From IMG/VR virus record IMGVR_UViG_3300048996_000163, positions 62,001 to 126,000 of that record: a stretch of DNA of 64,000 bases, one strand, 5' to 3'. This DNA is from a virus. The translations under genes were made by a program, and so were the position numbers. This document shows, in pieces, positions 26,743 through 26,991 of this stretch; the stretch's first letter is position 1, and each line of letters opens with the position of its first letter. The notes beneath the pieces were generated by a model that saw nothing but the letters and a program-made list of their open reading frames with translations, did not search any database and was not told the origin of the DNA.

Positions 26743-26991
26743 CGCACCGGGAGGAGCCTGCTTCAGTTGCGAGTGCCCGAGATCAAGGTCGGGAGCGGTA
26801 TGAGTGCCTTTGCTCTGCCATCTGAGCTACCGGCGTCGAAACGCCGAGCAGGAATTGAACCTGCGACCCAAGGATTAGAAGTAACCGCCACCTGCGCACC
26901 GGGCACCGCATCTGAAGTTGTAGGCCGCTCCCGAGATCAATGTGCCAGCGGTGTTTTTCGCAGAAGAAGTAACCGCTGGCGGCGCACCGGG
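26743..26991. repeat. Short direct repeats in the Y RNA locus
   Basis: AGAAGTAACCGC occurs at 26877 and 26965, and CGCACCGGG at 26743, 26895 and 26983. The 88-base offset between the two joint copies indicates a partial tandem duplication inside the locus. CCCGAGATCAA also occurs twice (26776, 26930). Confidence 0.8.
26776..26938 (-). ncRNA. yrlA: YrlA-type Y RNA with permuted tRNA-like module
   Basis: On the minus strand, 50 bases before the rsr start. An outer stem GGGAGCGG (26925-26932) / CCGCTCCC (26791-26798) and a second stem ATG(c)GGTGCC / GGCACTCAT enclose a tRNA mimic in permuted order: T-arm GCAGG-TTCAATT-CCTGC, an acceptor-like stem CGGCGT-TTCG-ACGCCG, then the D-arm GCTC-AGATGGCA-GAGC. 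The 3' strand CTTGATCTCGGG resembles the 3' strand of Ro-binding helices (CUUGACU in vertebrate Y RNAs). YrlA RNAs bind Rsr and mimic tRNA. Exact ends are unknown. Confidence 0.8.

What the first reader, a model, noticed from the sequence alone, without database searches (positions are those of the whole stretch)
26776..26938. Y RNA with a tRNA mimic in permuted order and TTCG-capped acceptor stem
The minus-strand RNA has a T-arm (GCAGG TTCAATT CCTGC), an acceptor-like stem closed by TTCG, and then a D-arm (GCTC AGATGGCA GAGC). The Ro-binding stem enters through what would be the anticodon side. It also carries an ACTTCTAAT segment like an anticodon loop with TCT. So it looks like a circularly permuted tRNA(Arg)-type module inside a Y RNA.
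Basis: partly seen in the sequence, partly recalled or inferred. Interest (0 to 1): 0.85.

Follow-up and report, generated by a model that had tools for sequence, protein, structure and literature searches.

The report
Virus-borne Y RNA that mimics tRNA
A virus-classified, actinobacteria-related DNA record carries, next to a gene for the ring protein Ro60, a small RNA shaped like a tRNA whose arms come in rotated order; this architecture is already known from bacterial Y RNAs, but relatives found here suggest a fuller version that also keeps an anticodon arm.

Summary
On the minus strand, 26806-26874, there is T arm - 7-bp acceptor stem capped by TTCG - U8/A9 - D arm, with a Ro60-type stem outside it and a TROVE/Ro gene just downstream. 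A covariance model built from 22 relatives, without the window, finds it as the only hit in 64 kb (70.5 bits, E = 8e-23). Across 108 nonredundant relatives the tRNA tertiary pair 15-48, never used for selection, covaries G-C/A-U (p = 3e-27).

The idea is not new. YrlA Y RNAs have this order (Rfam RF02553), and the Salmonella YrlA crystal structure has been reported as a circular permutation of tRNA (PMC11472068). The window RNA is a divergent member: 36.8 bits against a YrlA cut-off of 69.

Two details fail. The TTCG cap is not conserved. 'ACTTCTAAT' is not a supported anticodon loop: it is the conserved Y RNA motif TACTTC plus TAA, and the upstream Y RNA without a tRNA part has TACTTC too.

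Unexpected: more than half of the related Y RNAs, in actinobacteria and phages, carry a complete anticodon arm. Whether this was described before I could not check, because the key papers were not readable. Some public phage records annotate these RNAs as tRNAs.

The parts
26768..26910 (-). Y RNA 2 (YrlA-type), approximate limits given by the outer Ro-type stem
   Evidence: constrained fold, MFE fold, Ro-stem signature CCGGTGCG ... TTGATCTCGGG
26891..26904 (-). 5' strand of the Ro-type stem, GCCCGGTGCGCAGG
   Evidence: the motif GGTGYR is found upstream of 102 of 144 modules
26776..26790 (-). 3' strand of the Ro-type stem, GACCTTGATCTCGGG
26877..26883 (-). conserved Y RNA motif TACTTC(T)
   Evidence: TACTTC in 116 of 144 relatives; TACTTCT also in Y RNA 1 at 26965-26971
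26875..26881 (-).
   Evidence: loop opened by the Ro stem, sequence not kept in close relatives, TACTTC explained as a Y RNA motif
26870..26874 (-). anticodon-stem 3' strand (39-43), TCCTT
   Evidence: pairs with 26806-26810; helix covaries in relatives
26865..26869 (-). variable region (44-48), GGGTC; C48 pairs with G15
   Evidence: Levitt pair covariation
26848..26864 (-). T arm GCAGG-TTCAATT-CCTGC
26830..26847 (-). acceptor-like 7-bp stem closed by TTCG
   Evidence: stem covaries in relatives; loop sequence variable
26812..26827 (-). D arm GCTC-AGATGGCA-GAGC, preceded by U8/A9 at 26828-26829
26806..26810 (-). anticodon-stem 5' strand (27-31), AAGGC, four of five pairs with TCCTT
26924..26997 (-). 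Y RNA 1: short Y RNA with Ro-type stem and no tRNA module
   Evidence: fold z = -2.7; Ro-stem signature
25143..26726 (-). Ro60/TROVE protein gene (ATG at 26726; the longest ORF begins with GTG at 26747)
   Evidence: Pfam PF05731, 68 bits; PHROG 850; phage Ro-like proteins 37-47% identical

Best explanation
This is a YrlA-type bacterial Y RNA carried, with its Ro60 gene and a second short Y RNA, by a virus-classified, actinobacteria-related record. Shown by sequence and comparison: a Ro-type closing stem; a tRNA core in circularly permuted order whose acceptor end is sealed by a small loop and whose anticodon loop is opened, so that the Ro stem leaves where that loop would be; tRNA-like tertiary pairing 15-48. 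Inferred: the lower stem binds the Ro ring; the sealed tRNA core cannot be charged, but is read by proteins that recognise the tRNA elbow (pseudouridine and dihydrouridine enzymes, and an effector such as PNPase); the RNA thereby gates the Ro ring and tethers an effector to it, as in the Deinococcus Ro-Y RNA-PNPase complex. In an infected or lysogenic cell this would redirect degradation or handling of structured RNA, including damaged tRNA.
For: Adjacent TROVE/Ro gene; Ro-stem signature in both RNAs; Rfam YrlA aligns arm for arm, E = 2.5e-6; covariance model of relatives hits at E = 8.3e-23; 99% of cells paired with 137 two-sided changes in 22 relatives against 43 in shuffles; 15-48 covariation in 108 nonredundant modules, p = 2.6e-27; the module is linked to Ro genes in viral, phage and bacterial loci. 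For the mechanism: YrlA is reported as a substrate of DusA and TruB, and a Ro-Y RNA-PNPase complex is reported (PMC8394870).
Against: Below the curated Rfam YrlA cut-off (36.8 against 69 bits). No transcript, protein binding or PNPase link was shown for this branch. No promoter was found by the simple scan. The folding energy alone is not unusual.
Confidence: 0.8

Rival explanations
1. The tRNA-like module is a decoy: the phage Ro-Y RNA particle binds and titrates host enzymes that attack or modify tRNA (anticodon nucleases, VapC-like toxins), protecting the tRNA pool during infection.
For: It sits in a virus record without ordinary tRNA genes. Related Y RNAs come in arrays, up to four permuted modules, and many display U33 loops with variable triplets. 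Competitive inhibition of an anticodon nuclease by YrlA has been proposed (PMC7790460). Phage tRNAs are thought to evade such nucleases (PMC10264068).
Against: The window RNA itself has its anticodon loop opened, so it would offer only the elbow. The same RNAs occur in many bacterial loci, not only in phages. No nuclease binding is known.
Confidence: 0.2
2. It is a permuted tRNA gene: the transcript is processed by opening the acceptor loop, which releases a functional tRNA.
For: The order equals that of permuted tRNA genes in algae (own knowledge); acceptor, T and D parts are nearly canonical.
Against: The sealing loop is usually 3-6 nt with no encoded CCA, and the sealing stem is often 8-9 bp rather than 7. 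The window RNA has no closed anticodon loop. In class A relatives the triplet agrees only weakly with the tRNA body. The Ro stem would have to be excised.
Confidence: 0.03
3. It is a chance product of decayed or tandem normal tRNA genes: T arm of one tRNA next to the D arm of the following one.
For: Tandem tRNA genes can look permuted across their junction: the window RNA hits a tRNA-Arg/tRNA-Met pair in mycobacteriophages at about 76% identity.
Against: The acceptor strands pair with each other and covary over a short loop. There is no ordinary tRNA in this 132.7-kb record. Micromonospora tRNA regions score at most 33.5 bits on the model against 70.5. The module is conserved next to Ro genes of many actinobacterial genera.
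Confidence: 0.01

Closest known systems
YrlA Y RNA (Rfam RF02553; Salmonella YrlA, PDB 6CU1)
   Same: Order T arm - acceptor hairpin - D arm, closed by a stem in the place of the anticodon stem, next to a Ro60/Rsr gene; reported as a circular permutation of tRNA.
   Different: 36.8 bits against the 69-bit cut-off; none of 20 actinobacterial Y RNA loci reaches the cut-off. Many relatives, though not the window RNA, keep a complete anticodon arm, which the Rfam consensus lacks.
Short Y RNAs without a tRNA module (YrlB-like, encoded in the Salmonella rsr-yrlBA operon)
   Same: Y RNA 1 has the Ro-stem signature and no tRNA module and lies in tandem with the tRNA-like one.
   Different: Sequence relationship to YrlB was not tested.
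Deinococcus radiodurans Ro-Y RNA-PNPase particle (RYPER)
   Same: Expected way of working: Y RNA links the Ro ring to an effector (PMC8394870).
   Different: No PNPase link was tested here.
tmRNA and viral tRNA-like structures
   Same: RNAs that mimic tRNA.
   Different: tmRNA is not permuted; the viral structures match tRNA by non-circular permutation. Neither is linked to Ro.

Membership tests
YrlA-type Y RNA (architecture) | T arm, closed acceptor-like hairpin, D arm in this order inside a closing stem | tested here: met
YrlA-type Y RNA (architecture) | tRNA-like tertiary contacts | tested here: met
   15-48 covariation G-C/A-U in 98 of 108 nonredundant modules; A14, A21 and T54-T55-C56-R57-A58 conserved (partly required by the finder); the window has G15 and C48
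Rfam RF02553 as curated | score at or above 69 bits | tested here: not met
   36.8 bits, E = 2.5e-6; so it is filed as YrlA-like, outside the curated family model
bacterial Y RNA | encoded beside a Ro60 (TROVE) gene | tested here: met
bacterial Y RNA | Ro-binding stem with conserved sequence | tested here: met
   CCGGTGCG ... TTGATCTCGGG in both RNAs of the window and in many relatives; the resemblance to vertebrate Y RNA stems is from memory only
bacterial Y RNA | physical binding to Ro60 | not testable with these tools
   needs a binding assay
YrlA | modified by tRNA enzymes (TruB, Dus) | not testable with these tools
   reported for YrlA in PMC8394870
canonical tRNA | linear tRNA order with anticodon and scoring by tRNA models | tested here: not met
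   ARAGORN 0; tRNA model 17.3 bits against 29
   opened loop; triplet context not kept; TACTTC is a general Y RNA motif

The most novel reading that the evidence does not exclude
Many relatives of this RNA (class A: 90 modules, 62 nonredundant at 85%, in actinobacteria and their phages, with similar cases by eye in Xanthomonas, Brevundimonas and Enterococcus phages) are complete circularly permuted tRNAs: the Ro stem is inserted between positions 28 and 29 of the anticodon stem, the lower two pairs are made with bases after the D arm as in tRNA, and a 7-nt loop with U33 and purine 37 is displayed while the triplet varies freely. These would be Ro-tethered, sealed tRNA look-alikes with an intact anticodon arm, for instance diversifying decoys or sensors for enzymes that act on anticodon arms. 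The window RNA would be the opened-loop sister class. The structural part is well supported; the function and the absence of an earlier description are not established.
Probability: 0.5. Interest if true: 0.65.

Novelty: new member of a known kind. Interest (0 to 1): 0.42.

Why it matters
For the RNA itself, modestly: it extends YrlA-type tRNA mimics to an actinobacterial and phage branch that the current Rfam model misses at its cut-off, with tertiary covariation as firm support. The wider set matters more. If related Y RNAs keep a full anticodon arm, tRNA mimicry by Ro particles goes beyond the elbow, and it becomes testable which enzymes that act on anticodon arms they bind. It also warns that some 'tRNA genes' annotated beside Ro genes in phages are Y RNAs, which affects studies of why phages carry tRNAs.

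Tried and rejected
Ordinary tRNA or tmRNA: ARAGORN and Rfam negative. tRNA(Arg)-TCT identity: the 11-mer ACTTCTAATCC matches a Micromonospora tRNA-Arg(TCT), but the match rests largely on the Y RNA motif TACTTC and relatives do not keep it. Anticodon identity of class A modules: against 241 reference tRNAs the triplet agrees with the nearest tRNA body in 15 of 90, with 7.4 expected, p = 0.0085; this is weak and partly shared ancestry, so isotype-specific mimicry was not claimed. Local closure of the lower two anticodon-stem pairs in class A: not above shuffles, whereas pairing with the bases after the D arm is. Folding energy of the window RNA alone: uninformative. Promoter and terminator scans: nothing. 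The primary YrlA papers and reviews (RNA 2014, Structure 2018, Microbiol Spectr 2018, Annu Rev 2020) were not held, so I could not check whether anticodon arms were described there.

Full report
What is there. The window is part of a 132,717-base IMG/VR virus record. On the minus strand a Ro60/TROVE gene (start at 26726 or 26747; Pfam PF05731; PHROG 850) is preceded by two tandem Y RNAs. Y RNA 1 (about 26924-26997) is a short hairpin with the Ro signature and no tRNA part. Y RNA 2 (about 26768-26910) is the RNA of the finding. The closest Ro relatives in annotated phages are 'Ro-like RNA binding proteins' of Streptomyces, Gordonia and Arthrobacter phages, 37-47% identical over the full length; in genomes the best is from Asanoa, 65%. 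The host is therefore probably an actinobacterium (inference).

Check of the observation. The minimum-energy fold contains the three arms, a CCUU/AAGG helix and the outer stem, although its energy is not better than that of shuffles. ARAGORN finds no tRNA and the tRNA model gives 17.3 bits against a cut-off of 29. Rfam YrlA (RF02553) aligns to 26808-26872 arm for arm, 36.8 bits, E = 2.5e-6, but below its cut-off of 69.

Relatives. With the Ro protein I fetched 56 viral loci, 11 annotated phage loci and 80 bacterial loci. A pattern finder for T arm - hairpin - 2 nt - D arm gave 80 forward and 0 reverse hits in the phage set with 0 in shuffles, and 75 forward and 0 reverse in the bacterial set. 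After removing three spurious hits and duplicates, 144 distinct modules remained, 108 at 85% nonredundancy. Most of those in the phage set lie within 700 nt upstream of Ro. Some viral loci are prophages that also occur in the bacterial set; identical modules were counted once. The capping loop varies freely, with more than 50 sequences; TTCG is one of the commoner ones, 4 of 76.

Covariation. Pairs of the arms were partly required by the finder, so the strongest evidence is what was not selected. The Levitt pair between D-loop position 15 and position 48 is G-C in 56 and A-U in 42 of 108 nonredundant modules, with one G-U and no A-C (Fisher p = 2.6e-27; shared ancestry is not fully removed). 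On an alignment of 22 opened-loop relatives, 99% of cells pair, with 137 two-sided changes against 43 in shuffles and a collapse when partners are slid (members were chosen for a complete 27-31/39-43 stem). A covariance model of these 22, without the window, finds 26806-26874 as the only match in 64 kb, 70.5 bits, E = 8.3e-23. Regions with ordinary Micromonospora tRNAs reach at most 33.5 bits; the best modules from a mycobacteriophage and from Enterococcus, Brevundimonas and Xanthomonas phages reach 67-78 bits.

Two classes. In class B, which includes the window, the anticodon stem 27-31/39-43 is formed between bases after the D arm and bases before the variable region, and the loop is opened by the Ro stem. 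35 modules fit only this pattern, against 6.3 on average and at most 12 when the 3' strands are dealt out at random. This is the Rfam YrlA layout. In class A (90 modules, 62 nonredundant) a local hairpin supplies 29-31/39-41 and a 7-nt loop, while 27 and 28 are the bases after the D arm, pairing with 43 and 42 (55 and 53 of 62 Watson-Crick; shuffles average 34.5 and 21.4, maxima 44 and 34). Local pairing at those two positions is not clearly above shuffles. So the Ro stem is inserted between 28 and 29 and the whole anticodon arm is kept. Without selecting on loop sequence, 51 loops that fit only class A have T33 in 47, a purine at 37 in 47 and A38 in 48, while 34-36 vary. In the phage set 45 of 76 modules have such an arm, against 3.4 expected and at most 8. 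The triplet agrees only weakly with the tRNA body, so the arm looks generic rather than isotype-specific. Several modules satisfy both pairing tests (class 'AB'), so class counts are approximate.

The anticodon claim. ACTTCTAAT in the window is the conserved Y RNA motif TACTTC plus TAA. TACTTC also occurs in Y RNA 1, which has no tRNA part, and in 116 of 144 relatives. The closest relatives, Y RNAs of Micromonospora (L077, L087, L148), have CTTCTAA or CTTCTCA, and other class B members diverge further. The TCT 'anticodon' is therefore not supported, although an 11-mer does match a Micromonospora tRNA-Arg(TCT).

Prior knowledge. PMC8394870 describes YrlA as resembling the D, T and acceptor arms of tRNA, as a substrate of DusA and TruB, and a Ro-Y RNA-PNPase particle. 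PMC11472068 reports that the YrlA crystal structure 6CU1 superposes on tRNAs as a circular permutation. PMC7790460 suggests that YrlA may competitively inhibit an anticodon nuclease and reports that it is not cut by it. From memory, Chen et al. 2014 reported Y RNAs with tRNA-like domains near Ro60 in more than 250 bacteria and phages; that paper was not held.

Mechanism. Shown: anatomy, conservation, linkage to Ro. Inferred from studied relatives: binding of the outer stem to Ro, recognition of the sealed tRNA core by tRNA enzymes or an effector, gating and tethering. I hold the identity as a YrlA-type Y RNA at about 0.95 and the tether mechanism in this virus at about 0.5; the single confidence of 0.8 is for the statement as a whole with its inferred steps marked.

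Noticed in passing
L002, L010, L019, L036, L061 and others; 62 nonredundant modules: Sister Y RNAs (class A) keep a complete anticodon arm, with the Ro stem inserted between positions 28 and 29 of the anticodon stem.
   Followed up: yes
L061 2716-2787; L059 2769-2843; L060 2777-2850; L066 2760-2850; L201 1943-2010; L202 1943-2017: Public phage records annotate these Y RNAs as tRNA genes (Arg, Arg, Ser, Pro, Thr, Ser); ARAGORN calls overlap 38 permuted modules. A few of these calls may be real neighbouring tRNAs.
   Followed up: partly
L203 1323-1392 and 1500-1570; L208 4073-4144: Permuted-tRNA RNAs also flank a second type of Ro-like gene: DUF2828 in an Enterococcus phage and its relative, annotated Ro-like, in mycobacteriophage Finnry. 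They seem to carry another motif, ACAGCAA.
   Followed up: partly
L206 2150-2430: Upstream of the DUF2828 gene of a Listeria phage lie three tandem hairpins with a shared ACAGCAA-TACTA motif and no tRNA module. They may be the unexplained highly transcribed RNAs that PMC12282133 reports upstream of this gene in the related phage CKA15 and guesses to be Y RNAs.
   Followed up: partly
L039 3240-3760: Array of four permuted-tRNA modules upstream of one Ro gene, with four different capping loops.
   Followed up: no
L131, Y RNA 284 to 189 nt upstream of Ro: A Y RNA with a partial mimic: a hairpin with a CTGTAAA loop followed by a T arm, no acceptor or D arm.
   Followed up: no
window 26727-26758: GC-rich hairpin followed by TTTTCTC directly before the Ro start codon, overlapping its likely ribosome-binding site GGAAGGGG; it was not called by the terminator scan.
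   Followed up: no
L014, L015, L024, L027 and similar modules: Five modules have A15-A48 instead of a Levitt pair, with D stems GTGT/GCAC or GGGT/GCCC and mostly CC-starting T stems.
   Followed up: no
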